NCBI GenBank assembly: GCA_933228675.1
Contig: OW121740.1
Coordinates: forward strand, 129,301,799-129,365,798
DNA from: Stomorhina lunata
Taxonomy: Eukaryota; Arthropoda; Insecta; Diptera; Rhiniidae
Reading direction: 5' to 3'
Length of the DNA: 64,000 nucleotides
A program made the translations under genes and the position numbers. How positions within the stretch are numbered: position 1 is the first letter of the stretch; each line of letters starts with the position of its first letter. Shown piece after piece: positions 10,404-57,860 of the stretch. The notes beneath the pieces are model-generated. The model was not told the DNA's origin. It did not search any database and saw only the letters and a program-made list of their open reading frames with translations.

Positions 10404-10427
10404 GACAGACAGACAGACAGACAGATA

Positions 10428-10503
<76 letters not shown>

Positions 10504-10526
10504 GGCAGGCAGGCAGACAGACAGAC

Positions 10527-10577
<51 letters not shown>

Positions 10578-10633
10578 TAGACAGACAGACAGACAGAGAG
10601 AGAGAGACAGTCAAACAGACAGACAGACAGACG
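10404..10633. repeat. (CAGA)n tetranucleotide microsatellite
   Basis: About 230 bp of CAGA/GACA repeat with scattered interruptions (GATA, GGCA, GAGA). Reading the other strand gives endless Cys-Leu-Ser-Val open frames, which are an artefact. The family A and B elements carry short GTCC/GTCT runs, so this may be an expanded core of such an element. Confidence 0.95.
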
Positions 10634-16795: not shown

Positions 16796-16869
16796 TTTTT
16801 AGTACATTAGTACCTCCAACTCTCACATTTACAAAGCAAAAAATTAAAACAGTTTTTAAAAAACTGTTT

Positions 16870-19158
16870 ATTCAAAAATTTTTCTATACAAAATTTTTTA
16901 TCAAAAAATTTTCTATATAAAATTTTTTATCAAAAATTATTTATAGAACATTTTTTATTAAAAACTTTTTAAAGAAAATTTTTTATTAAAAAATTTTAAA
17001 GAAAATTTTTTATCAAAATTTTTCTATAGAAAATTTTTTTATCAAAAGTTTTTCTATCGAAAATTTTTTTATTAAAAATTTTTCTATACAAAATTTTTTG
17101 TCAAAAATTTTTTGTAGAAAATTTGTTTATCGAAAATTTTTCTACAAAAATGTTTTTATCAAAAATTTCTATAGGAACATATTTTAACAAAAATTTCTAT
17201 AGAAAATTTCTTTAAAATTTTTTTTATAAAAAATGCTTCTATAAAAATTATTTTTATCAAATGTTTAACGAAGATTTCTATACAAATTTTTTTTTTATCA
17301 AAAATTGTTCTAATAAAATTATTTGTGTCAAAAATTTTTCTGTAAAAATTTTTCTATCAACAAAATTTCTGAAAAAAAAATTTTTATCAAAAATTTGACT
17401 ATAGAAAATTTTTTTATCAAAAATTTTTCTATAGAAAATTTTTTTATCAAAAAATAACAACATTTTTTTATAGAAAATTTTTTATTAAAAATTTTTCTAA
17501 AGAAATTTTTTATTAAAACTTTTTCTATAGAAAATTTTTTACCAAAAATTTTTCTATAGAAAATTTTTTTATCAAAAATTTCTACAAAATTTTTTTTTAA
17601 TCAAAAATTTCTATAGAAAATATTTTTATCAAAAATTTCTATAGAAAATATTTTTATCAAAAATTTCTGTACAAAATTTTTTCATCAAAAATTTCTATAG
17701 AAAATTTTTTTTCAAAAATTTTTATAGAAAACTTTTTTTAACAGAAATTTCTATAGAAAATTATTTCATCAAAAATTTGTATAGAAAATGTCTTTATCAA
17801 AAATTTCTATAGAAAATTTTTTTATCAAAAATTTTTCTATGGAATATTTTTATCAAAAATTTCTGTACAAAATTTTTTCATCAAAAATTTCTATAGAAAA
17901 TTTTTTTTGAAAAAATTTTTATAGAAAACTTTTTTTAACAGAAATTTCTATAGAAAATTATTTCATCAAAAATTTGTATAGAAAATGTTTTTATCAAAAA
18001 TTTCTATAGAAAATTTTTTTATCAAAAATTTTTCTATGGAATAAAAATTTTTCTATAAATTTTCTGTCAAAAATTTCTATTGAAAATTTTTTCATAAAAA
18101 TTTCTATAGACAATTTTTTTTATCAACAATATCTATAGATAATTTTTTTATCGAAAATTTCTATAGAAAATTTTTCCATCAAAAATTTCTATTAAAAATT
18201 TTTCTATCACAAATTTCTATTGAAAATTTTTTATCAAAAATTTCTATATAAAATTCTATAATCAATAATTTTTCCATTGAAAATTTTTTATTCTATCAAA
18301 AATTTCTATAGAAAATTAATTTATTAAAAATTTATATAGAAAATTTTTTTATTAAAAATTTCTATATACCATTTTTTTATCAAAAATTTCTATACAAAAT
18401 TTTTTCATCAAAATCTTCTATATAAAATTATTTTATCAAAAATTTTTTATAGAACATTTTTTTATCAAAAATTTCTATAGAAAATTTTTTTTGTCAAAAT
18501 CAAGAATTTCTATAGAAAATTTATTTATCAAAAATTTCTATAGAAAACTTTTTTATCAAAATTTTCTATAAAAATTTTTTTTTATCAAAAATTTCTATAG
18601 AAAATGTTTTTATCAAAAATTTCTATAAAAAATTTTTTTATCAAAAATTTTTATAGAAATTTTTTAATAAAAAAAAATTCTATAGAAATTTTTAATAAGA
18701 AGAAAAAATTCTTTTAATAAAAATTTTTCTATAGAAATTTTTCTATAGAAATTTTTTTTTTTTGATCAAAAATTTCTGTACAAAATTTTTTCATCAAAAA
18801 TTTCTATAGAAAATTTTTTTATCGAAAATTTTTCTACAGAAAATTCTTTTATCAACAATTTTTCTATAGAAAACATTTTTTTATCAACAAATTTTTTACT
18901 GAAAACTCTTTTATCAAAAATTTTTCTTCAACATCTTTTATCAAAAATTTCTACATAAAATTCTTATATCAAAAAATTTTATAGCAAATTTTTTTCAAAA
19001 AAAATTTCTATAAACAATTTTTTTACAAAAATTTTTCTATCAAAAATTTTTCTATAGAATATTCTTTTATCATAAATTTTACTGTTTTTCTACAGAAAAA
19101 TATTTCTAGAAAAATATTATTATAAAACATTTTTCTATTAAAAATTTTTGTATGAAAA
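16870..19158. repeat. 28-31-bp minisatellite, ATCAAAAATTTCTATAG type
   Basis: About 2.3 kb of monomers with TTTATCAAAAATTTCTATAG followed by AAAATTTTTT, period 28-31 bp, the variation coming from T-run length. A higher-order duplication of 196 bp is visible: the passage starting TCTGTACAAAATTTTTTCAT at 17666 recurs at 17862. The short open frame on the - strand at 17278-17463 is a translation of the repeat. Confidence 0.9.
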
Positions 19159-20611: not shown

Positions 20612-22503
20612 TTATAAATTTTTGAAAATTTAAAAAAATAAGAAAATTTACCATAAAAACAAATAATAAGAAATTTTTGAAGAATTTCCTGCAAAAAGAA
20701 GCTAATTTTGAAAAATTTCCTTAAACAACAATTTCTTGAAAAATTTAATATAAAAAGACAAATTTTGTGAAAAATTTACTATGAAAATACAATTTTTTTT
20801 AATAAATTCCTTTAAAGACTAGAAATTTTTTAAAAATGTCCAAAAAATTTCTATAAAAATATATATTTTTTTTTAATTTCCTATAAAAGAAGAAATTTTT
20901 GAAAAATGTCCGATAAAGAATATAAACTTTTAAAAAATGTCCCAAAAAATATAAGAAATTTTTTAAAAATTTCCTATAAAAATTAGAAATTTTTGAAAAA
21001 CTATCATATAAAAGTAAGAAATTATTGAAATATTTCCTACAAAAATAAGAAAAATTTTCTATAAAAAGAAGAAATTTTTGAAAAATTTCCTTTCAAAATA
21101 AAAACTTTTTGAAAAATTTCCTTTAAAAATAAGAAATTTTTGAAAAATTTCCTGTAAAAATAAAAAGTTTTTGAAAAATTTCCTATAAAACTAAGAAATT
21201 TTTTTAAAATTTCCTATCAAAATAGGAAATTTTTGAAAAATTTTCTATAAAACAAGAGATTTTGTAAAAATTCTCTATAATAATAAGAAATTTTTGAAAA
21301 ATTTCCTATGGAAATAATAATTTTTTTTAAAAATTTTCTATAAAAATAGGAAATTTTTGAAAAAGTTTCTTATAAAAATATGAAATTTTTGAAAAAAATC
21401 CTACAAAAATAGGAAATTTTTGAAAAAATTCCTATAAAAATAAGAAATTTTCGAAAATTTTCCTCTTAAATAAGAAATTTTTGAAAAATTTCCTATAAAA
21501 ATAAGAAGTTTTTGAAAAATTTCCTATAAAAATAAGGAACTTTTTAATAACTTCCTATAAAAATAAGAAATTATTGGCAAATTTCCTATAAAAATAAGAA
21601 ATTTTTCAGAAATTTGCTATAAAAATAAGAAATTTTTGAAAAATTTCCTATAAAAATAGGAAATTTTTGAAAAATTTCCTATAAAAATAGGAAATTTTTG
21701 AAAAATTTCCTATAAAAATAGGAAATTTTTGAAAAATTTCCTATAAAAATAAGAAACTTTTGAAAAACTTTTTATAAAAATAAGAAATTTTTGAAAAATT
21801 TCCTATAAAAATAGGAATCTCTTGAAAAATATCCTATAAAAATAAGAAATTTTTGAAAAATATCCCTTAAAAATATTAAAGTCTTGAAAAATTTCCTATA
21901 AAATTAAGAAATTTCTAAAAAAAATTCCTATAAAAATGAGAATTTTTGGAAAAATTTTCTATAAAAATAAGAAATTTTTGAAAAAATTCCTATAAAAATA
22001 AAAAAATTTTGAAAAATTTCCTATAAAAATAAGAAATTTTCGAAAATTTTCCTCTTAAATAAGAAATTTTTGAAAAATTTCCTATAAAAATAAGAAGTTT
22101 TTGCAAAATTTCCTATAAAAATTAGGAATTTTTAAATAATTTCCTATAAAAATAAGAAATTATTGACAAATTTCCTATAAAAATAAGAAATTATTGACAA
22201 ATTTCCTATAAAAATAAGAAATTTTCGCAAAATTTCCTCTTAAATAAGAAATTTTTGAAAAATTTCCTATAAAAATAAGAAATTTTTGAAAAATTTCCTA
22301 TAAAAATAAGAAATTTTTGAAAAATTTCCTATAAAAGAAAGAAATTTTTATAAAATGTCCTACCAAAATAAGAAATTTTTGAAAAATTTCCTATAAAATT
22401 GGGGTTTTTGAAAAATTCCTATAATAATAAAAAAGTTTTCAAAAAATTTCTCTAAAAATTAAAAGTTTTTGAAAATTTCCCTACAAAAATCAAAATTTTT
22501 TTC
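20612..22503. repeat. 31-bp minisatellite, AAATTTTTGAAAAATTTCC type
   Basis: Tandem 31-bp monomers pairing AAATTTTTGAAAAATTT with CCTATAAAAATAAG or CCTATAAAAATAGG. Each half is a near palindrome. The first 500 bp are diverged, 21450-21800 and 22000-22330 very regular. A block near 21440-21590 is repeated near 22030-22180 (shared TTTTCGAAAATTTTCCTCTT variant), showing multi-monomer duplication. Confidence 0.95.
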
Positions 22504-23987: not shown

Positions 23988-25990
23988 AAGTAATCGGTAA
24001 CTTTTCTATAGGATAAAAGAGTTATAGATAATTTTTCTATTGACAAAAAAAAAGTTTAAGATAACTTTTCTATAGAATAAAAAACGTCATCGATAACTTT
24101 TCTATAGGATAAAAAAGTTATAGATAACTTTTCTATAAAATCAAAAAGTCATGAATAACTTTTCTATAGAATAAAAAAGTCATAAACTTTTCTATAGAAT
24201 AAAAAAGTAATCGATAACTTTTCTACAGAATAAATATAGAATAAAAAAGTTATCGATAACTTTTCCAAAGAATAAAAAAGTTATCGATAATAGAAAAAAA
24301 GGTTAGCGATAACTTTTTTATAGAATAAAAATGTTATCGATAACTTTTCTATAAAATAAAAAAATTATTGAAAATTTTTCTATAGAAAAAAAAAGTTATC
24401 GATAACCTTTCTATAGAATAAAAAAGTCATTAATAACTTTTCTGTAGAATACAAAAGTTATCAATAACATTTACATAGAAAAAAAGTTATTGATAACTTT
24501 TCTATAGAATAAAAAAGTTATTAATAACCTTTCTATAGAATAAAAAAGTTATCGATTTCTTTTCTGTAGAATAAAAAGCGTATTGATAACTTTTCTTTTG
24601 AATAAAATAGTTTTCGATAACTTTTCTATAAAGTAAAAAAGATATCGATAACCTTTGTATAAAATAAAAATGTTATTAATAACTTGTCTATAAAATAAAG
24701 AAGTTATCGATAAATTTTCTATAGAATAAAAAAGTTATCGATGACATTTCTATGCAACAAAATATTTTCGATAACTTTTCTAAAGAATAAAAAGTAATTT
24801 ATAACTTTTCTACACAATTAAAAAGTTATAGATAACTTTTCTAAAGAAAAAAAGTTATCGATAAATTTTCTGTAGAGTAAAAAAGTAATTGATAGCTTTC
24901 CTATAGAATAAAAAAGTTAGAAAAAACTTTTCTATAGAATAATAAAATTATCAATAACTTTTCCATAGAGAAAAAAGTTATCGATAACTTTTGTATGGAA
25001 TAAAAATGTTATCGATCACTTTTCTATAGAATATAAAAGTTATTGATAATTTTTTTATAGAATAAAAAAGTTATCGATAACTTTTCTATCGAATAAGAAA
25101 GTTAGCGGTAACTTTTCTATAAAATAAAATAGTTATCGATAACTTTTCTATAGAAAAAAAAGTTAACGGTAACTTTCCTATAGAATAAAATGGTTATCGA
25201 TAACTTTTCTATAGAAACGAAAAGTTATAGATAACTTTTCTATAGAATAAAAACGTTATCGATAACTTTTCTTTAAAATAAAAAAGTTATTGATAACTTT
25301 TCTATAGAATAAAAAGTTATCGATAACTTTTCTATAAAATAAAAAAGTTAACGCTTACTTTTCTTTAGAAATAAAATTTCTCGAAAACTTTACATCAGAA
25401 TAAAAAAAATCGATAACTTTTCTATAGAATAAAAAATGTTATTGATAACTTTTCTGTAGAATTAAAAAGTTATCGATCACTTTTCTATAGAATAAAAAAG
25501 TTATCGATACCTTTTCCATAGATTAAAAAAGTTATTGATAACTTTTCTATGGAATAAAAATTTATCGATAACTTTTCTATAGAATAAAAAAATTATTGAT
25601 AAATTGCTATAGAATTAAAAAAAGTTATCGATAAACTTTTTATAGAATAAAAAATTTATCTATGACTTTTCTATAGAATAAAAAAGTTATCGATAACTTT
25701 TCTATAGAATAATCAATTTATCGATAACATTTCTATAGAATGATGAAATTGTCGATATTTTTTCAATAGAACAAACTAAATATAGATATAAAAAAAAAAC
25801 TTCGATAACTTTTTTAATATAATAAACAAAAAAGTTTATCGATAAAAAGTTTATCGATAATAAAAAGTTTATCGATAATATTTAACAAAATAAAAAATTA
25901 TCGATAAACTTTTTATAGAATCACAAATGTTATCGATTACATTTCTAAAGAATTAAAACTTTACTTTTATGGAAAAGTTGTCGATAAAAT
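23988..25990. repeat. 31-bp minisatellite, TTATCGATAA + CTATAGAATAAAAA type
   Basis: About 2 kb of 31-bp monomers: AAAAGTTATCGATAACTTTT then CTATAGAATAA. It is the same family as 11740-12650 but with one arm changed from GAAAAGTA to GAATAAAA, and more diverged between monomers. Dozens of intact or one-off TATCGATA palindromes. From 25780 it decays into fragments such as TTTATCGATAATAAAAAG. Confidence 0.95.
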
Positions 25991-32010: not shown

Positions 32011-32707
32011 TTTTTTAAAAATTTCTTATAAAAATAAGAAATTTTTGAAAAATTTTTTATAAAATTGAGAAATATTTAAAAATTTTCTATAAAAATAAAA
32101 TTTTTTTGAAAAATTTTTAAAAATTTCTTATCAAAATAGGATTTCTTTTAAAAAATTTCTTATCAAAATAGAAATTTTTTAAAAAATTTCTTATAAAAAT
32201 AAAAAATTTTTTAAAAATTTCTTATAAAGACAAGACATTTTTGAAAAATTTCTTATAAAAATAAAAAATTTTGGAAAAATTTCTTATAAAAACAAAGAAA
32301 TTTTTGAAAAATTTCTTTAAAAAAAAAGAAATTTTTGAAAAATTTCTTTTAAAAAAAAGAAATTTTTGAAAAGTTTCTTATAAAAATAAGAAATTTTTGA
32401 AAAATTTCTTATAAAAATAAGAAATTTTTGAAATATTTCTAATAAAAATAAGAAATTTTTGAAAAATTTCTTATAAAAAAAAAGAAATTTTTGAAAAAAT
32501 TCTTATAAAAAAAAGAAATTTTTGAAAAATTTTTTATCAAAAAAAGAAATTTTTGAAAAATTTCTAATAAAAAAAAAGAAATTTTTGAATAATTTCTTAT
32601 AAAAAGAAGAAATTTTTGAAAAATTTTTTATAAAGATAAGAAATTTTTGAAAAATTTCTTATAGAGATAAGAAATTTTTGAAAAATTTTTTATAAAAATA
32701 AGAAATT
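32011..32707. repeat. 31-bp minisatellite, TTTCTTATAAAAATAAG type, left part
   Basis: Monomers AAATTTTTGAAAAATTT + CTTATAAAAATAAG. The same variant resumes at 36579 to the right of the 579-bp array, so the two parts were probably one array split by the insertion. Confidence 0.95.
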
Positions 32708-32710
32708 AAG

Positions 32711-32745
32711 AGGTTGTGGGTTCGAATCCGGGCTCAGGTTCATAT
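32711..32745 (+). other. tRNA T-arm / pol III B-box-like motif (first of eight)
   Basis: GGGTTCGAATCC fits the B-box/T-loop consensus GGTTCGANTCC. The same motif recurs in every 579-bp unit (33290, 33869, 34448, 35027 on +; complements at about 35371, 35950, 36529). No matching A box is visible upstream, so an internal pol III promoter is not complete. Confidence 0.5.
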
Positions 32746-32829
32746 CATAAATTTTTATTTTTTAATTTTAATAATTTTTATGATTTTTAAATTAGATTAA
32801 TAATTTTTTAAGAATACTGAAAAAACTAT

Positions 32830-32898
32830 GTGACACTTAGCAGTGTGGAATGCTGCATTTTCTGTCCCGCTACGGACTTCATCAGCACACTGTGTCAC
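32830..32898 (-). ncRNA. Hammerhead ribozyme motif, copy 1
   Basis: On the - strand the 69 nt read, in order: helix I 5' strand GTGACA + CAGTGTG; CTGATGA (conserved C3-A9); helix II GTCC-GTAGCG-GGAC flanked by one A on each side; GAA (G12-A14); helix III AATG-CAG-CATT, which supplies A15.1-U16.1; C17 at the cleavage site; then CACACTG, a CTAAG bulge and TGTCAC closing helix I. All core residues of the hammerhead are present. The short helix III is the pattern known from hammerheads in metazoan retroelements and satellites. The A-A apposition at 10.1/11.1 replaces the usual G-C pair and may lower activity. Confidence 0.75.
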
Positions 32899-33408
32899 CA
32901 ACTGTTAGATGCCAGTAGTTAAGATCATCTATTTAACTGAATTCTTAAGCGAAATTGAAAACGAGAATTATATTAACACTCATTTCTATTTCACCTATGA
33001 CCATATGATCGATTCAGTTAGACGAACTTATCCACCATAGTTTTTTCCTTTATGTTTTGTATTCCTATCCTTTATTAATCTACATTTACTTTGTACTTTA
33101 ACCAACTGTCAGCTGGTAATGAAGACAAAGATTTTTGTTTTTGACAAGTTTCTGTTTATTCTTTTACGTTAATGCAAATTTGAATTTAGTATTAACTTGA
33201 AAGAGTTAGTGAAAACATGTAAATCGCGGTGCCCATGCAATTTAATTGAAAGAAATTAATTTTTAGTTGAACCATGAATTTATGTTAAGAGGTTGTGGGT
33301 TCGAATCCGGGCTCAGGTTCATATCATAAATTTTTATTTTTTAATTTTAATAATTTTTATGATTTTTAAATTAGATTAATAATTTTTTAAGAATACTGAA
33401 AAAACTAT

Positions 33409-33477
33409 GTGACACTTAGCAGTGTGGAATGCTGCATTTTCTGTCCCGCTACGGACTTCATCAGCACACTGTGTCAC
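33409..33477 (-). ncRNA. Hammerhead ribozyme motif, copy 2
   Basis: Identical by eye to copy 1, 579 bp further on. With copy 1 it would release a 579-nt monomer from a - strand transcript. Confidence 0.75.
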
Positions 33478-33987
33478 CAACTGTTAGATGCCAGTAGTTA
33501 AGATCATCTATTTAACTGAATTCTTAAGCGAAATTGAAAACGAGAATTATATTAACACTCATTTCTATTTCACCTATGACCATATGATCGATTCAGTTAG
33601 ACGAACTTATCCACCATAGTTTTTTCCTTTATGTTTTGTATTCCTATCCTTTATTAATCTACATTTACTTTGTACTTTAACCAACTGTCAGCTGGTAATG
33701 AAGACAAAGATTTTTGTTTTTGACAAGTTTCTGTTTATTCTTTTACGTTAATGCAAATTTGAATTTAGTATTAACTTGAAAGAGTTAGTGAAAACATGTA
33801 AATCGCGGTGCCCATGCAATTTAATTGAAAGAAATTAATTTTTAGTTGAACCATGAATTTATGTTAAGAGGTTGTGGGTTCGAATCCGGGCTCAGGTTCA
33901 TATCATAAATTTTTATTTTTTAATTTTAATAATTTTTATGATTTTTAAATTAGATTAATAATTTTTTAAGAATACTGAAAAAACTAT

Positions 33988-34056
33988 GTGACACTTAGCA
34001 GTGTGGAATGCTGCATTTTCTGTCCCGCTACGGACTTCATCAGCACACTGTGTCAC
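33988..34056 (-). ncRNA. Hammerhead ribozyme motif, copy 3
   Basis: Identical by eye to copy 1, in register at 579 bp. Confidence 0.75.
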
Positions 34057-34566
34057 CAACTGTTAGATGCCAGTAGTTAAGATCATCTATTTAACTGAAT
34101 TCTTAAGCGAAATTGAAAACGAGAATTATATTAACACTCATTTCTATTTCACCTATGACCATATGATCGATTCAGTTAGACGAACTTATCCACCATAGTT
34201 TTTTCCTTTATGTTTTGTATTCCTATCCTTTATTAATCTACATTTACTTTGTACTTTAACCAACTGTCAGCTGGTAATGAAGACAAAGATTTTTGTTTTT
34301 GACAAGTTTCTGTTTATTCTTTTACGTTAATGCAAATTTGAATTTAGTATTAACTTGAAAGAGTTAGTGAAAACATGTAAATCGCGGTGCCCATGCAATT
34401 TAATTGAAAGAAATTAATTTTTAGTTGAACCATGAATTTATGTTAAGAGGTTGTGGGTTCGAATCCGGGCTCAGGTTCATATCATAAATTTTTATTTTTT
34501 AATTTTAATAATTTTTATGATTTTTAAATTAGATTAATAATTTTTTAAGAATACTGAAAAAACTAT

Positions 34567-34635
34567 GTGACACTTAGCAGTGTGGAATGCTGCATTTTCT
34601 GTCCCGCTACGGACTTCATCAGCACACTGTGTCAC
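34567..34635 (-). ncRNA. Hammerhead ribozyme motif, copy 4
   Basis: Identical by eye to copy 1, in register at 579 bp. Confidence 0.75.
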
Positions 34636-35145
34636 CAACTGTTAGATGCCAGTAGTTAAGATCATCTATTTAACTGAATTCTTAAGCGAAATTGAAAACG
34701 AGAATTATATTAACACTCATTTCTATTTCACCTATGACCATATGATCGATTCAGTTAGACGAACTTATCCACCATAGTTTTTTCCTTTATGTTTTGTATT
34801 CCTATCCTTTATTAATCTACATTTACTTTGTACTTTAACCAACTGTCAGCTGGTAATGAAGACAAAGATTTTTGTTTTTGACAAGTTTCTGTTTATTCTT
34901 TTACGTTAATGCAAATTTGAATTTAGTATTAACTTGAAAGAGTTAGTGAAAACATGTAAATCGCGGTGCCCATGCAATTTAATTGAAAGAAATTAATTTT
35001 TAGTTGAACCATGAATTTATGTTAAGAGGTTGTGGGTTCGAATCCGGGCTCAGGTTCATATCATAAATTTTTATTTTTTAATTTTAATAATTTTTATGAT
35101 TTTTAAATTAGATTAATAATTTTTTAAGAATACTGAAAAAACTAT

Positions 35146-35214
35146 GTGACACTTAGCAGTGTGGAATGCTGCATTTTCTGTCCCGCTACGGACTTCATCA
35201 GCACACTGTGTCAC
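35146..35214 (-). ncRNA. Hammerhead ribozyme motif, copy 5
   Basis: Identical by eye to copy 1. It is the last motif before the inversion junction at about 35300. Confidence 0.75.
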
Positions 35215-35768
35215 CAACTGTTAGATGCCAGTAGTTAAGATCATCTATTTAACTGAATTCTTAAGCGAAATTGAAAACGAGAATTATATTAACACTCATT
35301 TTATTAACACTCATTATTAAAATTAAAAAATAAAAATTTATGATATGAACCTGAGCCCGGATTCGAACCCACAACCTCTTAACATAAATTCATGGTTCAA
35401 CTAAAAATTAATTTCTTTCAATTAAATTGCATGGGCACCGCGATTTACATGTTTTCACTAACTCTTTCAAGTTAATACTAAATTCAAATTTGCATTAACG
35501 TAAAAGAATAAACAGAAACTTGTCAAAAACAAAAATCTTTGTCTTCATTACCAGCTGACAGTTGGTTAAAGTACAAAGTAAATGTAGATTAATAAAGGAT
35601 AGGAATACAAAACATAAAGGAAAAAACTATGGTGGATAAGTTCGTCTAACTGAATCGATCATATGGTCATAGGTGAAATAGAAATGAGTGTTAATATAAT
35701 TCTCGTTTTCAATTTCGCTTAAGAATTCAGTTAAATAGATGATCTTAACTACTGGCATCTAACAGTTG

Positions 35769-35837
35769 GTGACACAGTGTGCTGATGAAGTCCGTAGCGG
35801 GACAGAAAATGCAGCATTCCACACTGCTAAGTGTCAC
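35769..35837 (+). ncRNA. Hammerhead ribozyme motif, copy 6 (inverted unit)
   Basis: On the + strand: GTGACA 35769-35774, CAGTGTG 35775-35781, CTGATGA 35782-35788, helix II region 35789-35804, GAA 35805-35807, helix III 35808-35818, C17 at 35819, CACACTG 35820-35826, bulge CTAAG 35827-35831, TGTCAC 35832-35837. Predicted cleavage lies between 35819 and 35820. Confidence 0.75.
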
Positions 35838-36347
35838 ATAGTTTTTTCAGTATTCTTAAAAAATTATTAATCTAATTTAAAAATCATAAAAATTATTAAA
35901 ATTAAAAAATAAAAATTTATGATATGAACCTGAGCCCGGATTCGAACCCACAACCTCTTAACATAAATTCATGGTTCAACTAAAAATTAATTTCTTTCAA
36001 TTAAATTGCATGGGCACCGCGATTTACATGTTTTCACTAACTCTTTCAAGTTAATACTAAATTCAAATTTGCATTAACGTAAAAGAATAAACAGAAACTT
36101 GTCAAAAACAAAAATCTTTGTCTTCATTACCAGCTGACAGTTGGTTAAAGTACAAAGTAAATGTAGATTAATAAAGGATAGGAATACAAAACATAAAGGA
36201 AAAAACTATGGTGGATAAGTTCGTCTAACTGAATCGATCATATGGTCATAGGTGAAATAGAAATGAGTGTTAATATAATTCTCGTTTTCAATTTCGCTTA
36301 AGAATTCAGTTAAATAGATGATCTTAACTACTGGCATCTAACAGTTG

Positions 36348-36416
36348 GTGACACAGTGTGCTGATGAAGTCCGTAGCGGGACAGAAAATGCAGCATTCCA
36401 CACTGCTAAGTGTCAC
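36348..36416 (+). ncRNA. Hammerhead ribozyme motif, copy 7 (inverted unit)
   Basis: Identical by eye to copy 6, 579 bp downstream, on the + strand. Confidence 0.75.
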
Positions 36417-36578
36417 ATAGTTTTTTCAGTATTCTTAAAAAATTATTAATCTAATTTAAAAATCATAAAAATTATTAAAATTAAAAAATAAAAATTTATG
36501 ATATGAACCTGAGCCCGGATTCGAACCCACAACCTCTTAACATAAATTCATGGTTCAACTAAAAATTAATTTCTTTCA

Positions 36579-37634
36579 AAATAAGAAATTTTTGAAAAAT
36601 TTCTTGAAAAAAAAATATAAAAATAATTCTCATAAAAATAAGATTTTTGAAAAATTTCTGATAAAAAAAAAAAGAAATTTTTGAAAAATTTCTTATAAAA
36701 ATAAGAAATTTTTGAAAATTTCTTATAAAAATAAGAAAATTTTTGAAAAATTTCTTATAGAAATATTATTATAAAAATAAGAAATTTTTGAAAAATTTCT
36801 TGTAAAAATAAGAAATTTCTTATAAAGATAAGAAATTTTTGAAAAGTTTCTTTTAAAAATAAGAAATTTTTGGAAAATTTCTTATAAAAATAAGAAATTT
36901 TTGAAAAATTTCTTATAAAGATAAAAAATTTTTCAAAAATTTCTTATAAAAATAAGAAATTTTTGAAAAATTTCTTATAAAAATAAGAATTTTTTGAAAA
37001 ATTTCTTATAAAAATAAGAAATTTTGAAAAGTTTCTTTTAAAAATAAGAAATTTTTGGAAAATTTCTTATAAAAATAAGAAACTTTTGAAAAATTTCTTA
37101 TAAAGATAAGAAATTTTTGAAAAATTTCTTATAAAAATAAGAAATTTTTGAAAAATTTCTTATAAAAATAAGAAATTTTTGAAAAATTTCTTATAAAAAT
37201 AAGAAATTTTTGAAAAATTTCTTATAAAAATAAGAAATTTTTGAAAAATTTCTTAGAAAAATAAGAAATTTTTGAAAAATTTCTTAAAAAAATAAGAAAT
37301 TTTTGAAAAATTTCTTATAAAAATAAGAAATTTTTGAAAAATTTCTTATAAAAATAAGAAATTTTTGAAAAATTTCTTATAAAAATAAGAAATTTTTGAA
37401 AAATTTCTTATAAAAATAAGAAATTTTTGAAAAATTTCTTATAAAAATAAGAAATTTTTGAAAAATTTCTTATAAAAATAAGAAATTTTTGAAAAATTTC
37501 TTATAAAAATAAGAAATTTTTGAAAAATTTCTTATAAAAATAAGAAATTTTTGAAAAATTTTTATAAAAATAAAAAATTTTTGAAAAATTTCTTATAAAA
37601 ATAAGGAATTTTTGAAAAATTTATAAAAAAAAAT
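36579..37634. repeat. 31-bp minisatellite, TTTCTTATAAAAATAAG type, right part
   Basis: Same monomer as 32011-32707. From 37080 to 37560 the units are almost identical (about 15 monomers), the most homogeneous stretch of this family in the window. Confidence 0.95.
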
Positions 37635-42780: not shown

Positions 42781-42866
42781 CTCCGAACTTCTTGGAAATT
42801 AAACACTTGCTCTTAAGTGTTGTCATAAAGCTAAATACCAATTTCTACTCAAAAACAAAACTCAAC

Positions 42867-43289
42867 ATGAAAGCTTTTCTTTGCCTTGCCTTCGTAGCCT
42901 TTGTGGCTTTAGCCTCAGCTACCACCAGCTCGAAAGGTGCAACATCCCTCAACACCAACACCCAAACGAAACTGGAAGTCGAAACTGAAAAACAACTGAA
43001 GGGTGATCGTTTCCGTAAATCAGCTTATGGTGGTGGTAGTGCTGGCGGTTCATATGGTGGTGGTGCTGCTAGTATTCCTGCTCCTCCCTGTCCCAAGAAC
43101 TATTTATTTAGCTGCCAGCCTAATTTGGCTCCTGCACCTTGTGCTGCTCCAGCTCCTTCATATGGTAGTGCTGGTGCGTATACAGCTCATGTACCCGTGT
43201 ATATTGCACCAGTGGGTCCTAACTATGGTGTTCCCCAAGCATGGAGCGGTTTGACGCCAGAGGCTATAAATCATCTGTATCAATATTAA
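42867..43289 (+). CDS. Vitelline membrane protein
   Basis: A 140-residue secreted eggshell protein, made in ovarian follicle cells in Drosophila and crosslinked into the vitelline membrane. Residues 1-18 ([18 protein letters not shown]) form a signal peptide. Residues 19-52 are polar and end in a basic RFRK (48-51) that could be a furin-type processing site. Residues 55-68 are Gly/Ser/Ala-rich. Residues 74-105 are the VM domain, with [18 protein letters not shown] giving the diagnostic C-x7-C-x8-C spacing (Cys75, 83, 92), followed by [12 protein letters not shown]. The Tyr-rich tail fits dityrosine or peroxidase crosslinking. The only other Cys is in the signal peptide. The gene is intronless, like Drosophila Vm genes, with a TATA box and a poly(A) signal. 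The start was chosen because the upstream in-frame ATG lies too close to the TATA box and adds a non-signal extension. Which Drosophila paralogue it matches (Vm26A, Vm32E, Vm34C types) cannot be settled by eye. Confidence 0.93.
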
Positions 43290-43424: not shown

Positions 43425-44054
43425 GAAAATGTTTATTTTTTTTATTTTAAAAGCGTATAATTTTGAAAATTTTTAGTTAACAGTGTTAATTTTTTTGAAA
43501 AATGCATCCAATTGACGAAACATTAGCTCTAAAGTACTTATCCCCTTATTCGTAAAGGAAAAATAAAGTTATGACAAGAATTTAAATTAAAATTTAATAA
43601 AATATTCATAGAATAAGCCTTTGACAGCTTATTAAACTTTTATGAATATGAAGGTTAAAGTTTAAAGAATTTATTATCATACTTTCTACGTCAAGCAAAC
43701 TTCTGATAAAGTCATTGTAAAAATCGAAGTTGAAAGGGGTTATAATTTGAGTATACGTCTTTGGATTTCATAATATAGAGTTTGAAAAAGATTTTACAAT
43801 ACGTTCTAAAATTGTGTAACCTTACACTTAAATCGGGTTTTAACTAAAAAACTTTAATTCTGCGTTTTCTTCTTCTGAAGAATTTCTTAAATTTCTTCTA
43901 GTTTTCGTTAATCCTAGTGTCTAATTGTCTCATTTGCATAAAACTTTTTATTTAAACAAAATCAACATTTTCGACAACAATCTAATTATAGCAGCAAAAT
44001 GCGACAACATTGCATAAGGCTTACAGTGGGACATTATCAAATGAACGTCAAAGA
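43425..44054. other. AT-rich DNA downstream of the vitelline membrane gene
   Basis: No gene or repeat seen. Confidence 0.55.
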
Positions 44055-45975
44055 AATTAGAAATTTTTTCATAATCTCTCATAACAATAAGAAAATTTTG
44101 AAAAATTTTCTACAACAATAAGTAATTTTTGAAAAATTTCTTATTCAAATAAGAAATTTTTGAAAAATTTCCTATAAAAATAAGAAAATTTTGAAAAATT
44201 TCTTATAAAAATGAAATTTTCGAAAAATTTCTTATAAAAATAAGAAATTTTTTTTAAATTTCCTATAAAAATATAAAATTTTTTAAAAATTTCCTTTAAA
44301 AATAAGAAATTTTTCAAATATTTTCTATAAAAATAGGAAATTTTTCAAAAGTTTCCTATAAAAATAAGAAATTTTTAAAATATTTCCTATAAAAATAGGA
44401 AATTTTTGAGAAAATATGAAATTTTTCAAAAATAATAAATTTTTGAATATTTTCCTATAAAAATATTTAAGAAATTTTTAAAAAACTTTCTATAAAACTA
44501 AGACATTTTTAAAAAATGTTCTAAAAAATATAAAATTTTTGAAAAATTTCCTATATAAAAATTACTTATAAAAAGTAAAAATTTTTAAAAAAATTTCAAT
44601 AAAAAGACGAAATTATTGAAAAATTCACTACAAACATAATAAATTTTTGAAAAATTTCCTATAAATATAAGAAATTTTGAAAAAAAAAAACATGAAAACA
44701 TTTTTAAAAAAATTTCCAATAAAAATAAGAAAAATCTGATAAATTTTATATAAATATAAGAAATTTTTGATAATTTTCTTATAAAAATAACAAATTTTTA
44801 AAAAATTTCCTACTAAAATACGAAATGTTTGAAAATTTACCCATATAAAATTAAAAAATTTTTGCAAAATTTCCTATACAATAAGGAATTTTTTGAAAAA
44901 TTTCTTATAAAAATAAGAAATTTTTGAAAATTTTCTTATAAAAATAAGAAATGTTTAAAAAATTTCTTATAAAACTAAGAAAATTTTGAAAAATTACTTA
45001 TAAAAATAAGAAATTTTCTATAAGATTCTTATAAAAATAAGAAATTTTTGAAAAATTACTTAAAAAATTAGAAATTTTCTACAAATTTATTATAAAAATT
45101 TGAATTTTTTTTTAATTTTTTTATAAAAATAAGAAATTTTTAAAAAATTTCTTATCAAAATCAGAAATTTTTGAAAAATTTCTTATAAAAATAAGAAATT
45201 GTTGAAAAACTTCTTATCAAAATAAAAAATTTTTGAAAAATTTCTTACAAAGATAAGAAACTTTTGAAAAACTTCTTATAAAAATAAGAAATTTTTGAAA
45301 AATTTCTTATAAAAATAAGAAATTTTTGAAAATTTTTTATAAAAATAAGAAATTTTTGAAAATTTTTTATAAAAATAAGAAATTTTTGAAAATTTTTTAT
45401 AAAAATAAGAAATTTTTGAAAAATTTCTTATAAAAATAAGAAATTTTTGAAAAATTTCTTATAAAAATGAGAAATTTTTGAAAATTTTTTTATAAAAATA
45501 AGAAATTTTTGAAAAATTTCCTATAAAAATAAAAAATTTTTGAAAAATTTCCTATAAAAATAAGAAATTTTTGAAAAATTTCCTATAAAAATAAGAAATT
45601 TTTGAAAAATTTCCTATAAAAATAAGAAATTTTTGAAAAATTTCCTATAAAAATAAGAAATTTTTGAAAAATTTCCTATAAAAATAGTAAATTTTTGAAA
45701 AATTTCCTATAAAAATAAGAAATTTTTGAAAAATTTCCTATAAAAATAAGAAATTTTGAAAAATTTCCTATAAAAAAAAGAAATTTTTGAAAAATTTCCT
45801 ATAAAAATAAGAAATTTTTGAAAAATTTCCTATAAAAAAAAGAAATTTTTGAAAAATTTCCTATAAAAATAAGAAATTTCAGAAAAATTTCCTATAAAAA
45901 TAAGAACATTTTCTATAGATATGAGAAAGTTTTGAAAAATTTCCTATAAAGATAAGAAATATTTCAAAAATTTTT
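44055..45975. repeat. 31-bp minisatellite, AAATTTTTGAAAAATTTC type
   Basis: About 1.9 kb. Monomers with the TTATAAAAATAAG second half (45130-45480) give way to CCTATAAAAATAAG (45500-45890), so two subfamilies sit side by side. The left 700 bp are diverged and indel-rich. The open frame on - at 44628-44867 (Phe/Lys-rich) is a repeat artefact. Confidence 0.95.
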
Positions 45976-47342: not shown

Positions 47343-49110
47343 TCAAAAAATTTCCTATAAAAAAATTTCCAATTTTCATAGGAAATTTTTAAAAAATTTC
47401 CTATTTTTATAGGAAATTTTTCAAAAGTTTCCGATTTTTATAAGAAATTTTTCAAAAATTTCCTATTTTGATAGGAAAATTTTCAAAAATTTCCTATTTT
47501 GATAGGAAAATTTTCAAAAATTTCCTATTTTGATAGGAAATTTTTCAAAAATTTCCTATTTTGATAGGAAATTTTTTCAAAAATTTCCTATTTTTATAGG
47601 AAATGTTTTCAAAAATTTCCTATTTTTATAGGAAATTTTTCAAAAATTTCCTATTTTTATAGGAAATTTTTCAAAAATTTCCTATTTTTATAGGAAATTT
47701 TTCAAAAATTTCCTATTTTTATAGGAAATTTTTCAAAAATTTCCTATTTTTATAGGAAATTTTTCAAAAATTTCCTATTTTTATAGGAAATTTTTCAAAA
47801 ATTTCCTATTTTTATAGGAAATTTTTCAAAAATTTCCTGTTTTTATAGGAAATTTTTCAAAAATTTCCTATTTTTATAGGAAATTTTTCGAAAATTTCCT
47901 ATTTTTATAGGAAATTTTTCGAAAATTTCCTATTTTTATAGGAAAATTTTCAAAAATTTCCTATTTTTATAGGAAATTTTCCAAAAATTTCCTATTTTTA
48001 TAGGAAATTTTTCAAAAATTTCCTATTTTTATAGGAAATTTTTCAAAAATTTCCTATTTTTATAGGAAATTTTTCAAAATTTTCCTATTTTTATAGGAAA
48101 TTTTTCAAAAATTTCCTATTTTTATAGGAAATTTTTCAAAAATTTCCTATTTTTATAGGAAATTTTTCAAAAATTTCCTATTTTTATAGGAAATTTTTCA
48201 AAAATTTCCTATTTTTATAGGAAATTTTTCAAAAATTTCCTATTTTTATAGGAAATTTTTTCAAAAATTTCCTATTTTTATAGGAAATTTTTTCAAAAAT
48301 TTCCTATTTTTATAGGAAATTATTCAAAAATTTCCTATTCTTATAGGAATTTTTTCATAAATTTCCTATTTTTATTGGAAATTTTTCAAAAATTTCCTAT
48401 TTTTATTGGAAATTTTTCAAAAATTTCCTATTTTTATTATAAATTTTTCAAAAATTTCCTATTTTTATTATAAATTTTTCAAAAATTTCCTATTTTTATA
48501 GGAAATTTTTCAAAAATTTCCTATTTTTATAAGAAATTTTTCAAAAATTTCTATTTTTATAGGAAATTTTTAAAAAATTTCTTATTTTTTTAGGAAATTT
48601 TTCAAAAATTTTCTATTTTTATAGGAAATTTTTCAAAAATTTTCTATTTTTATAGGAAATTTTTCAAAATTTTTCTATTTTTATAGGAAATTTTTCAAAA
48701 ATTTTCTATTTTTATAGGAAATTTTTCAAAAATTTCCTATTTTTATAGGAAATTTTTCAAAAATTTCCTATTTTTATAGGAAATTTTTCAAAAATTTCCT
48801 ATTTTTATTTAAAATTTTTCAAAAATATCCTATTAAAATAGATAATTTTTGAAAAATTTTCTATAAAAATAAGAAATTTTTGCAAAATTTCCTATAAAAA
48901 AGGAAAATTTTTGAAAATTTTCCTACAAAATTCAGAAATTTTTATATATTTTGAATTTTTTTTTTATCAATATAGGAAATTTTTGAAAAATTGCGTATAG
49001 AATTAAGAAATTTTTAAAAGTTTCTATAAAAATAACAAATTTTTGAAAAACTTCCTCTGCAAATATAAAATTTTTATTAAAATTTTTTTAAAATTTCCTT
49101 TAAAAAACTG
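47343..49110. repeat. 31-bp minisatellite, highly homogeneous, opposite orientation
   Basis: About 45 monomers of GAAATTTTTCAAAAATTTCC + TATTTTTATAG, the reverse orientation of the 20612 and 44055 families. Units from 47580 to 48330 are nearly identical. Each monomer holds the palindrome GGAAATTTTT-C-AAAAATTTCC interlocked with CCTATTTTTATAGG. At about 48830 the orientation flips to AAATTTTTGAAAAATTT for the last decayed units up to 49110. Confidence 0.95.
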
Positions 49111-51325: not shown

Positions 51326-53265
51326 ATTTCTATAGAGAATTTTTTTTATATAGAAAAATTTACATTGAAATATTTTCTATTTAAAAATTTATATTAAATA
51401 GTTTTCTATAGAAAAATTTATATTTAAAAGATTTCTATAGACAAATTTATATTGAAATATTTTCTATAGAAAAATTTATATTGAAATAAAGAAAAACTTA
51501 TATTAAAGTATTTTCTTTTGAAAAATTTATATTGAAATATTTTCTATCGAAAAATTTATATTAAAATATTTTCTTTTGAAAAATTTATATTGAAGTATTT
51601 TCTTTTGAAAAATCTATATTGAAATATTTTCTATAGAAAAATTTATATTGAAATATTTTCTTTTGAAAAATTTATATTGAAGTATTTTCTTTTGAAAAAT
51701 TTATATTGAAATATTTTCTTTTGAAAAATTTATATTGAAGTATTTTCTTTTGAAAAATTTATATTGAAATATTTTCTATCGAAAAATTTATATTAAAATA
51801 TTTTCTTTTGAAAAATTTATATTGAAGTATTTTCTTTTGAAAAATTTATATTGAAATATTTTCTATAGAAAAATTTATATTGAAATATTTTCTAAAGAAA
51901 AATTTATATTGAAATATTTTCTATAGAAAAATTTATATTGAAATATTTTCTATAGAAAAATTTATATTGAAATATTTTCTATAGAAAATTTATATTGAAA
52001 TATTTTCTATAGAAATATTTATATTGAAAAGTTTTCTTTAGACAAAGTTATACTGAAACATTTTCTATAGAAAAATTTATATTGGAATATTTTCTATAGT
52101 AAAATTTAAATAGAAATATTTTTTATAGAAAAATCTATATTGAAATATTTTCAATAGAAAAATTTACATTGGAATATTATCTATAGAAACATTTACATTG
52201 AAATATTTAATAAAGAAAAATTTATATTGAAGAATTTTCTATAGAAAAATTTATATTGAAATATTTTCTATAGAAAAACTTATATTGAAAATTTTTCTAT
52301 AGAAAAATTTATATTAAATTTTTTCTATAGAAAAATTTATATTGAAATATTTTCTATAGAAAAATTTATATTGAAAAATTTTCTATAGAAAAACATATAT
52401 TGAAAATTTTTCTATAGAAAAATTTATATTGAAATATTTTCTATAGAAAAATTTATATTGAAATTTTTTCTTTTGAAAAATTTATATTCAAATATTTTCT
52501 ACAGGAAAAATTTATATTGAAAAATTTATATTGAAATATTTTCTTTCGAAAAATTAATATTAAAATATTTTCTACAGTAAAATTTATATTGAAAAATTTT
52601 CTATAGAAAAATTTATATTGAAATATTTTCTATAGAAAAATTTATATTGAAATATTTTCTATAGAAAAATTTATATTGAAATATTTTCTTTCGAAAAATT
52701 TAATTGAAAAATTTTCTATAGAAAAATTTATATTGAAATATTTTCTATAGAAAAATTTATATTGAAATATTTTCTAAAGAAAAATTTATATTCAAATATT
52801 TTCTACAGGAAAATTTATATTGAAATATTTTCTATAGAAAAATGTATATTGAAATATTTTCTAAAGAAAAATTTATATTGAAATATTTTCTATAGAAAAA
52901 TTGATATAGAAAATTTTCTAAAGAAAAATGTTTATTGAAATTTTTTTATAGAAAACTTGATATTGAAATATTTTCTATAAAAAAATTGTATCTTTAAAAA
53001 TTTTCTATAGAAAAGTTTATGTTGAAGAGCTACCGTCAAAAGTTTTCTATATAAAAATTTATATTGAAATGTTTTCTAAAAAAATGTATTGAAATATTTT
53101 CTATAGAAAAATTTATATTAAAATATTTTCTATAAAAAAATTTATATTGAAATATTTTCTAAATATAAATTTGTATGTATTTTTCTGTAAAGAAAAATGC
53201 TTGTAATCTTTATACTAAAACTTGTATGTATATCACAAAACTTTCTATAGAAAAACTTGTTTGTA
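51326..53265. repeat. 29-bp minisatellite, CTATAGAAAAATTTATATTG type
   Basis: About 1.9 kb of monomers: ATTTTCTATAGAAAAATTTA + TATTGAAAT, period 29 bp, the only array clearly off 31. It shares the CTATAG dyad. A variant CTATCGAAAAATTTATATTA occurs at 51544 and again at 51776, 232 bp apart (8 monomers), marking a higher-order duplication. Confidence 0.95.
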
Positions 53266-56742: not shown

Positions 56743-56811
56743 TGGCTCTTTCTGTCAACTTTCATCATTTTTGACATGTTTTTGATGTTGAATTATGAAA
56801 ATAAGAATCGA

Positions 56812-57860
56812 TTTTGTATTGATTTAATTAAAACGTTAAGAATAGTACTGGAGCAATATAATGAGTTCCGCACCCCCCCAATTATCAACTTTATGAAGGC
56901 CTTCGACAGTGTCAACAGGAGCTATCTATGGAGAATTTTAGAAAATCGTAATATGCAACGAAAATTCTGAACTTAATTGAGCCAATGTACATAGACTTAA
57001 AATGTCGGATTCTATATAAATGTAAATTGTCGAATCCGTTAGAAGTTACTACTGGGGTAAAACAAGAATGTATCTTGTCACTTGTGATTTTTTTCCTTGT
57101 CATCGACAATATAATGCGCACCCCTTAAACAACTCGAGGACTTGGAATACGCTGATGACGTATGTCTTCTAAGCCAAAGCTCAGGTCACCTTCAAGAAAA
57201 CACTAGCGCTATTACTGTTGCAGTTGGGCTGGAAATCAATATTTCCGAGACAAAGATTATGCCTAGAGGCTATGGCGCAAACTCGTTGACACACATCAAT
57301 GTTAATAACGAGGTTATTTGATATGTAGGTACATTTAGTTATCTTGGTAGTTTGGTATCTTCAAAAGGTGGCGCCGACGAAGATATTGAATCGCGTATTA
57401 GAACGGCAAAATCTGCATTCGGCATTCTCCGAGCAATTTGGAGATCTCAGCAAATATCAACAACATCTAAGTTCCGAATATATAACTCAAATGTCAAGTT
57501 CATCTTGTATTACGGTTGAGAAACTTGGAAACACACAAATTCCATCGATAAGTGCCTACAAACCTGTGCAAACAAGTACTTGCGGCAAATCATTAACATA
57601 TGGTGGCCGAATCGCATAAGAAATGAGGATCTACTAAACGCTATAAACCAAATCCCTGCTTCTATAGAGATATGTCAGAGGAAATGGCGGTGGATATGCC
57701 ATTTCCAAATACAAAATACAAAATGCTCGACAAGCGCTTTGTTTTAATCCACAAGGAAGCAGCCGTAGTGTTGGTGCACCTGCCAGAACGTGGAGAAGGT
57801 CAAATGAAGCGGAGTTACAAACAACAAACTATTCATGGAATGATGTATGCCTAACATCTC
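56812..57860 (+). pseudogene. LINE reverse transcriptase remnant, 5'-truncated
   Basis: Three consecutive frames carry RT sequence. 56812-56970: KTLRIVLEQYNEF, then KAFDSVNRSYLWRIL (the A motif Asp is present, but the preceding residues are shortened). 56965-57128: KILNLIEPMYIDLKCRILYK and TTGVKQECILS (motif B). 57133-57700: LEDLEYADDVCLLSQS (YADD catalytic motif at 57148-57159), KINISETK-like region, YLGSLVSSKGGADEDIESRI, AFGILRAIWRSQQIS, YYG-stop-ETWK, ICQRKWRWICH. A further shift gives RQALCFNPQG and RTWRRS at 57728-57810. At least two frameshifts and three stops. Clade not assigned. It lies immediately downstream of a family A element. Confidence 0.85.

What the first reader, a model, noticed from the sequence alone, without database searches (positions are those of the whole stretch)
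32708..36578. Tandem 579-bp units each encode a hammerhead ribozyme (retrozyme-like satellite)
Seen: in every complete unit one strand reads CTGATGA, then a GTCC...GGAC helix, GAA, an AATG-CAG-CATT mini-helix, C, and a 13-bp helix I (CAGTGTG/CACACTG plus GTGACA/TGTCAC with a 5-nt bulge). Known: this is the order and the conserved core of type I hammerheads with a very short helix III, found in metazoan Penelope-like elements, retrozymes and satellites such as those of cave crickets and schistosomes. Inference: transcripts of the array would self-cleave into 579-nt monomers (between 35819 and 35820 in the + copies) and could circularise, giving a non-autonomous RNA-mediated element.
Basis: partly seen in the sequence, partly recalled or inferred. 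Interest (0 to 1): 0.93.

Follow-up and report, generated by a model that had tools for sequence, protein, structure and literature searches.

The report
Ribozyme element inserted from both strands
A small non-coding mobile element in a fly genome carries a probable self-cutting hammerhead RNA, and its insertions look as if one RNA circle was copied into DNA from both cut ends of the target at once, which points to the still unproven machinery that moves such elements in animals.

Summary
In detail: seven identical hammerhead-like motifs lie in 579-bp units at 32707-36577. Rfam does not report the motif; a model from 11 phage hammerheads ranks all seven copies first in the window (E 0.038 each). 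It is not a satellite: the same genome (728 Mb, a higher fly) holds at least 39 further loci. 28 of 40 loci are head-to-head, and 23 of those 28 carry 10-14 bp target duplications. Outer ends cluster at two sites 38 nt apart; 26 of 28 inverted loci have exactly one end of the longer kind. Inner ends are scattered. Arms reach 4.6 units, and the two arms of a locus resemble each other more than arms of other loci. A homologous 463-bp family shows the same plan. These are published marks of Penelope-like elements (two start sites, an optional tail on one inverted end, both strands primed). Best reading: a hammerhead retrozyme copied by rolling-circle reverse transcription of one circular RNA, primed from both target strands. 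Self-cleavage, circles and the Penelope partner remain unshown.

The parts
32707..36577 (.). whole insertion: two arms of 579-bp units, head to head
32695..32706 (+). target site duplication, left copy AAAATAAGAAAT (13 bp if the T at 32707 counts as target)
   Evidence: and sequence
36578..36589 (+). target site duplication, right copy AAAATAAGAAAT
   Evidence: and sequence
32707..35301 (-). minus arm, about 4.5 units; outer end at site A (unit 141-142)
35302..35312 (.). inverted junction with a few filler bases; a 15-bp stretch is repeated here (35283-35317)
35313..36577 (+). plus arm, about 2.2 units; outer end at site B (unit 179-181)
32841..32885 (-). hammerhead core copy 1
33420..33464 (-). 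hammerhead core copy 2
33999..34043 (-). hammerhead core copy 3
34578..34622 (-). hammerhead core copy 4
35157..35201 (-). hammerhead core copy 5
35782..35826 (+). hammerhead core copy 6; predicted cleavage between 35819 and 35820
36361..36405 (+). hammerhead core copy 7
35960..35963 (+). site A (unit 141-144): where one arm of most inverted insertions ends; beside the AC-rich stretch ACCCACAACCTCTTAA, in a predicted hairpin loop
35998..36000 (+). site B (unit 179-181): where the other arm ends; the 38 nt between A and B correspond to the 'tail'
32111..32694 (.). 31-bp AT-rich minisatellite, left target flank
36590..37622 (.). 31-bp AT-rich minisatellite, right target flank

Best explanation
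The block is one insertion of a non-autonomous, non-coding retroelement of the hammerhead retrozyme kind. Proposed cycle: a multimeric transcript is cut at each hammerhead into 579-nt monomers, which are closed into circles. An enzyme of the Penelope-like type makes a staggered cut of about 13 bp in AT-rich DNA, leaving two 3' ends. Both ends prime reverse transcription on the circular RNA, one at site A (unit 141-144) and the other at site B (unit 179-181). Each cDNA runs round the circle for up to several turns, and the two cDNAs are joined in the middle with little or no overlap. The result is a head-to-head array flanked by one target duplication, with a 38-nt tail on one end only. Shown from sequence: the insertions, the two clusters of outer ends, the one-of-each rule, the target duplications, the scattered inner ends, the likeness of the two arms of a locus. 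Inferred: self-cleavage, circularity, the Penelope-like enzyme, one template molecule for both arms.
For: 40 loci were aligned (window plus 39 fetched). 28 of 40 are head-to-head. 26 of those 28 have exactly one end at site B (binomial P 1.5e-6 against half and half). Target duplications of 10 bp or more occur in 23 of 28 inverted loci, 12 of them exactly 13 bp, against 14% with the right flank shifted and 11% (83 of 756) with flanks of other loci. The offset between the inner ends of the two arms is uniform over the unit (KS P 0.55, 26 loci). Of 68 arms, 50 are longer than one unit and 64 run through the cleavage site; the longest has 4.6 units. The two arms of a locus differ less than arms of different loci: 0.91% against 1.74%, 0 of 5000 shuffled pairings as low. 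Copying linear templates would only shorten arms, so repeated multi-unit arms need a step that multiplies units. The published Penelope-like enzyme of Anolis cuts and extends both strands, starts at two adjacent internal sites, most often in an AC-rich stem-loop, and prefers AT-rich DNA (PMC11167929). Rotifer Penelope copies are described with an inverted repeat end, an optional 31-bp tail on one of the inverted ends, 8-10 bp duplications, and the first 12 codons of the ORF inside the repeat (PMC3846280, passages). Here an ATG lies 12.3 (Fam1) and 11.0 (Fam2) codons before site A. A second homologous family (463 bp) repeats the plan in L191 and L180.
Against: A Penelope-like gene was neither found nor excluded in this genome: the search was asked 33 times and never answered. 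The hammerhead is not reported by Rfam, has an unpaired A.A at the base of helix II, and a rival fold is 3.1 kcal/mol better. The phage-hammerhead model did not report the Fam2 motif at E<=5. No RNA data. Variants that differ between arms are many: over all loci 67 variants in both arms against 100 in one arm, and of strictly private ones 9 in both (7 of 28 loci) against 64 in one; I read the one-arm variants as later mutations, but gene conversion could also make arms alike. In 10 of 25 loci another locus's arm is closer than the own partner. 12 of 40 loci have a single arm and weaker duplications, 0-11 bp. Five inverted loci have an end outside the two sites (unit 94-134), one has two A ends and one two B ends. 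Duplications of rotifer Penelope are 8-10 bp, not 13. The Anolis enzyme showed no difference in start site between the two strands, whereas here the two arms of one insertion use different sites.
Confidence: 0.7

Rival explanations
1. Ordinary satellite DNA amplified by unequal exchange; the hammerhead is a fossil.
For: Units in the window are 100% identical and tandem within each arm; the flanks are minisatellites.
Against: At least 40 dispersed short arrays with clustered outer ends; 28 of 40 inverted, 23 of 28 of these with 10-14 bp duplications, and different inner junctions.
Confidence: 0.05
2. The same both-strand insertion, but copied from a linear multimeric transcript; circles and hammerhead cleavage are not needed.
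For: In vitro the Anolis enzyme did not need hammerhead cleavage and unprocessed RNA was its main substrate (PMC11167929). The mismatch in helix II may weaken cleavage. Only 1 of 68 inner ends lies within 3 nt of the cleavage site, so cleaved 5' ends are not visible as stops; circles and uncut multimers both predict this.
Against: Arms join with -17 to +17 nt, leaving no room for flanks of a source array. Repeated copying from linear templates should shorten arms, yet 50 of 68 arms exceed one unit and the longest has 4.6.
Confidence: 0.2
3. Self-priming: the first cDNA folds back and copies itself, giving inverted repeats, as was proposed for rotifer Penelope (PMC3846280, passages).
For: Head-to-head products; one locus (L156) has inner ends close together, 431 and 440.
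Against: Fold-back should give mirror-image arms with the same inner coordinate. Here the offset of the inner ends is uniform and outer ends differ in 26 of 28 loci.
Confidence: 0.03
4. A LINE (APE-type non-LTR element) mobilises the unit and inverted arms come from L1-like twin priming.
For: AT-rich targets and short overlaps at the joins would also fit a LINE; a LINE-like RT fragment may lie in the window (56743-56970, not tested).
Against: In L1 twin priming (recalled) the second start is at a variable internal place; here both starts cluster at two sites 38 nt apart, the pattern published for Penelope-like elements.
Confidence: 0.12
5. The hammerhead resemblance is chance or dead and plays no part in the cycle.
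For: Rfam negative; strict descriptor negative; unpaired helix II base; Fam2 motif not reported by the phage model.
Against: Top seven hits of an independent model; low variation of the region; core kept in the homologous family with paired changes in helices I and III (hand count). An axolotl hammerhead with a U.U mismatch at the base of helix II cleaves 22% in an hour alone and efficiently as a dimer (PMC7229834).
Confidence: 0.12

Closest known systems
Metazoan non-LTR retrozymes with type I hammerheads (Cervera and de la Pena 2020, PMC7229834)
   Same: Non-coding, GC-poor repeat units with a type I hammerhead, in multimers of dispersed copies; target duplications, when present, longer than 4 bp.
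   Different: Unit is 579 bp (RNAs of ~170-400 nt in that abstract); arrays are head-to-head with two end sites, which I did not find described for retrozymes in the listings or in the passages.
Penelope-like elements: rotifer Penelope (PMC3846280) and Anolis Poseidon (PMC11167929)
   Same: Inverted head-to-head ends, optional 30-40 bp tail on one end, two adjacent RT start sites, AT-rich targets, both strands primed; hammerhead in Poseidon.
   Different: No ORF here (longest stop-to-stop 43 aa), target duplications of about 13 rather than 8-10 bp, several complete units per arm, hammerhead with a closed helix III and a helix I bulge.
Axolotl retrozyme hammerhead HHR_Amex2 (PMC7229834, section 15)
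   Same: Mismatch at the base of helix II in a retrozyme-borne type I hammerhead.
   Different: U.U there, A.A here (C.A in Fam2); unit of about 350 bp; vertebrate.
Schistosome and cave-cricket satellites with hammerheads (recalled; not read)
   Same: Hammerhead-bearing repeat in an invertebrate genome.
   Different: Here most copies are discrete insertions with target duplication, not a long satellite array.

Membership tests
Type I hammerhead ribozyme | Core CUGANGA...GAA...UH with three helices, open helix I | tested here: met
   7 of 7 copies
Type I hammerhead ribozyme | Base pair 10.1-11.1 at the foot of helix II | tested here: not met
   A.A in Fam1, C.A in Fam2; a natural retrozyme variant has U.U there
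Type I hammerhead ribozyme | Scores with a hammerhead covariance model | tested here: inconclusive
   Rfam none; own model: top seven hits of the window, E 0.038 each; Fam2 not reported at E<=5
Type I hammerhead ribozyme | Self-cleavage at the predicted bond | not testable with these tools
   needs in vitro transcription or RNA ends
Metazoan non-LTR retrozyme | Short non-coding units with a type I hammerhead, in multimers, dispersed | tested here: met
Metazoan non-LTR retrozyme | Circular RNA form | not testable with these tools
   no RNA data; circularity is inferred from arm structure
Element mobilised by Penelope-like machinery | Two adjacent reverse-transcription start sites 30-40 nt apart (tail) | tested here: met
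   ends at unit 141-144 and 179-181, beyond them chance matches to the target; 5 of 56 ends of inverted loci lie elsewhere
Element mobilised by Penelope-like machinery | Head-to-head inverted ends with tail on one of them | tested here: met
   26 of 28 inverted loci; 12 of 40 loci have one arm only
Element mobilised by Penelope-like machinery | AT-rich target | tested here: met
   67 of 80 flanks at least 80% A+T, mean 84%; the window as a whole is 75% A+T, so this is weak evidence
Element mobilised by Penelope-like machinery | A GIY-YIG/RT gene in the same genome | not tested
   The genome search PF01541 did not complete (33 requests)
Autonomous Penelope-like element | ORF with RT and GIY-YIG domains | tested here: not met
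   longest stop-to-stop 43 aa in the circular unit
tRNA-derived SINE | A box and B box promoter | tested here: not met
   perfect B box GGTTCGAATCC on the strand opposite to the hammerhead; no exact A box, one place with 1 mismatch
Classical satellite DNA | Long arrays without element ends or target duplications | tested here: not met

The most novel reading that the evidence does not exclude
Animal retrozymes insert by both-strand priming on one circular RNA: the two 3' ends of a 13-bp staggered cut each take a different one of two fixed start sites on the same circle, roll round it independently and are joined. The unit is itself a remnant of a Penelope-like pseudo-LTR (hammerhead, first 11-13 codons, tail), so these retrozymes are Penelope-like elements reduced to a self-circularising pseudo-LTR.
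Probability: 0.5. Interest if true: 0.85.

Novelty: new variant of a known kind. Interest (0 to 1): 0.72.

Why it matters
Which enzyme moves hammerhead retrozymes in animals is open: a 2020 review says their repeats show no conserved motif that could tell the autonomous partner (PMC7761336, passages). The end structure described here is such a mark. It makes the question testable in any genome with retrozymes: look for two end sites 30-40 nt apart, one per strand. It also gives a natural record of dozens of insertions for a mechanism (both strands primed, internal starts) that I have seen shown with one purified enzyme (PMC11167929), and argues that circular RNA templates are used in nature. 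A fly with such an element would be a convenient system.

Tried and rejected
Rejected readings: plain satellite, L1-like twin priming, fold-back self-priming, chance hammerhead (see rivals). A tRNA-derived SINE was considered because of the perfect B box on the opposite strand; no exact A box was found, and the stretch may instead be a remnant of an ORF start (post hoc, and Fam1 has a second ATG at unit 100 that is closed at once). The private-variant test of the one-template idea was weak: 9 private variants in both arms (7 of 28 loci) against 64 in one arm; I rely on the permutation test of arm likeness. Automatic alignment of the two families' hammerheads misplaced helix III and the 3' side of helix I, so paired changes (helix I pairs 4 and 6, helix III pair 2) were counted by hand; helix I pair 5 is broken in Fam2. 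Of 101 stop-to-stop frames of 90 aa or more in the fetched loci and the window, those passing a low-complexity filter (first 60 residues seen) showed nothing that I recognised as Penelope-like (not scanned with a library). The promoter-like motif scan and the Rfam searches led nowhere.

Limits: only 40 of 1577 first-look candidates in the genome were scored, so 40 loci are a lower bound and favour close copies. L157 holds two pieces 808 bp apart and L168 and L158 have interrupted plus arms; each was counted as one locus. Inverted loci with an end outside the two sites (5 of 28) were kept in the 26-of-28 count as non-B ends and left out of the 21-of-23 count. The first mapping put the inner end of L187 at unit 1 because the reference began there; remapping on a longer reference gives 573 and leaves the counts unchanged. 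The minisatellite word count (30 of 40 loci) has no chance control.
Full report
WHAT IS THERE. The window is from a 728-Mb assembly of 104 contigs. A vitelline membrane gene at 42864-43286 (PF10542, E 1.9e-18) is closest to blow-fly proteins (57% identity to Lucilia sericata), so the organism is a higher fly, perhaps a calyptrate; the species was not given. At 32707-36577 lie 579-bp units. Seven exact copies of the 45-nt hammerhead-like core are present, five on the minus and two on the plus strand, in two arms that meet head to head at 35302-35312. Full units are 100% identical. The block sits in a 31-bp AT-rich minisatellite, between two copies of AAAATAAGAAAT (12 bp, 13 with the next T).

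THE HAMMERHEAD. Rfam reports no hammerhead; in five control loci with 11 canonical motif copies it listed one. A covariance model from 11 phage hammerheads puts the seven copies first in the window, 15.1 bits and E 0.038 each, next hit 9.7 bits. In isolation a competing fold is 3.1 kcal/mol better than the hammerhead, and the mean pair probability of helix III is 0.00 without tertiary contacts. As a 579-nt circle the unit is strongly self-paired (-126.3 kcal/mol, z -5.4 against 40 shuffles). Between loci the hammerhead region varies at 10 of 3120 locus-sites, the rest at 196 of 17760 (end region 138-192 and two homopolymer positions left out). A published axolotl retrozyme hammerhead with a U.U mismatch at the same place cleaves 22% in an hour as monomer and efficiently as dimer (PMC7229834, section 15 read).

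THE INSERTIONS. A search of the own genome gave 121 matches (40 of 1577 first-look candidates scored), which I grouped into 40 loci including the window; 39 were fetched with flanks. Unit coordinate 1 is the first base after the predicted cut. 28 of 40 loci are head to head, 12 have one arm. Outer ends cluster at site A (unit 141-144..CACAACCTCTTA) and site B (unit 179-181..ATTTCTTTC), at times lengthened to 148-153 or 186-188 by matches to the AT-rich target. Of 28 inverted loci, 21 have one A and one B end, one A and A, one B and B, and five B with an end elsewhere (unit 94-134). Exactly one B end: 26 of 28. A left with B right and the reverse are equally common (11 and 10). Target duplications of 10-14 bp are found in 23 of 28 inverted loci, 12 of them 13 bp; the other five have 0, 0, 0, 7 and 9; controls 14% and 11%. 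L187 (TATAATCTTTTTC) and L153 (CAAATTTAAAAAT) have flanks without the minisatellite words, so the duplication is not just a product of the repeats. Inner ends are spread over the unit (KS against uniform P 0.12) and their offset between arms is uniform (P 0.55); arms join with -17 to +17 nt. Arms measure 0.06-4.6 units, median 1.3; 50 of 68 exceed one unit and 64 of 68 pass through the cleavage site (the other four are 35-159 nt long); one inner end lies within 3 nt of that site.

ONE TEMPLATE. The two arms of a locus are more alike than arms of different loci: mean 0.91% against 1.74%, 0 of 5000 shuffled pairings as low; the own partner is closest or tied for closest in 15 of 25 testable loci. 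Variants against the majority letter found in both arms and in one arm are, for example, 9 and 1 in L156, 5 and 1 in L172, 3 and 0 in L174, but 3 and 16 in L158, 0 and 11 in L173, 1 and 24 in L190; over all loci 67 and 100. Strictly private variants are mostly in one arm (64 against 9 in both). I read the one-arm variants as mutations after insertion. Gene conversion between arms is not excluded.

A SECOND FAMILY. The flanks of five of the 39 fetched loci hold pieces of another repeat; L191, fetched next to one of them, shows it whole. Its unit is 463 bp and aligns with the first at 61-73% over parts. It has a hammerhead with the same core, C.A at 10.1/11.1, a palindromic helix III (ATTGCAAT), and helix I changed with pairing kept at two positions and lost at one (hand count). 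Its arms in L191 are again head to head; one end stops near ..CCTAATTTTTC and the other runs about 40 nt further, as in L180. The phage model did not report this hammerhead at E<=5.

MECHANISM. Both arms start at clustered internal sites, so both strands of the target primed copying; a variable second start as in L1 twin priming (recalled), or fold-back priming, does not give this. Anolis Poseidon protein does this in vitro: both strands cut and extended, two adjacent internal starts, the most common in an AC-rich stem-loop, AT-rich targets, the 'tail' being the stretch between the starts (PMC11167929, parts 1-2 of 4 read). That paper found no difference in start site between the two strands, whereas here the two arms of one insertion use different sites; I take this to mean that the two primers share one RNA molecule. 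Rotifer Penelope copies are described with head-to-head inverted ends and an optional 31-bp tail on one of them, and carry the first 12 codons of the ORF in the repeat (PMC3846280, passages). Here the A-B distance is 38 nt, site A lies in the loop of a predicted GAACC/GGTTC hairpin in the circle, and an ATG lies 12.3 and 11.0 codons before site A in the two families, followed by I-N-S just after it in both (post hoc and short). I infer a Penelope-like enzyme and a unit derived from its pseudo-LTR. Because copying a linear template can only shorten arms, while arms of several like units keep arising, I infer a circular template, which is what the hammerhead would supply.

WHAT IS NOT SHOWN. No cleavage, no RNA, no circle. 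The Penelope-like gene was never searched: the tool did not answer 33 requests. In vitro, the Anolis enzyme did not need hammerhead cleavage, so the ribozyme's part is the weakest link.

NOVELTY. Retrozymes and their likely dependence on Penelope-like elements were proposed by Cervera and de la Pena (PMC7229834: abstract, part 1 of Results, sections 15 and 17 and passages; PMC7761336: passages). Searches aimed at inverted or head-to-head retrozymes gave no title or abstract start describing them (listings; most listed papers were not opened); 'inverted', 'head-to-head' and 'orientation' do not occur in the main text of PMC7229834. Subscription papers and supplements were not available. The new part is the end structure and what it says about insertion.

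Noticed in passing
L191:1-3001; also L169, L178, L180, L183, L167: A second, homologous 463-bp hammerhead family (Fam2), head-to-head in L191 and L180, in the same kind of minisatellite.
   Followed up: partly
unit 119-129, e.g. window 32719-32729: A perfect tRNA-type B box (GGTTCGAATCC) on the strand opposite to the hammerhead; no exact A box.
   Followed up: partly
window, e.g. 6727-9018, 16860-19051, 21049-22500, 23988-25775, 32111-32707, 36568-37622, 44054-45912, 47361-48925, 51344-53176: Many arrays of AT-rich 28-31 bp minisatellites, several of them quasi-palindromic; 30 of 40 retrozyme loci carry such words in their flanks (no chance control).
   Followed up: partly
L174:1-260 (minus strand): A 5'-truncated piece of a related element ending at site A, between 13-bp duplications AAACACAGATATT.
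   Followed up: no
L158:2694-3350: The plus arm is interrupted by about 650 bp with inverted ends ACACTGCTCTGC/GCAGAGCAGTGT, probably a small DNA transposon.
   Followed up: no
window 42864-43286: Vitelline membrane protein gene (PF10542), nearest to blow-fly Vm26Aa-like proteins.
   Followed up: yes
window 56743-56970: Open stretch with KAFDSVNRSYLW, reminiscent (recalled) of a LINE reverse transcriptase.
   Followed up: no
   Followed up: no
window 10404-10632: Long (GACA)n array.
   Followed up: no
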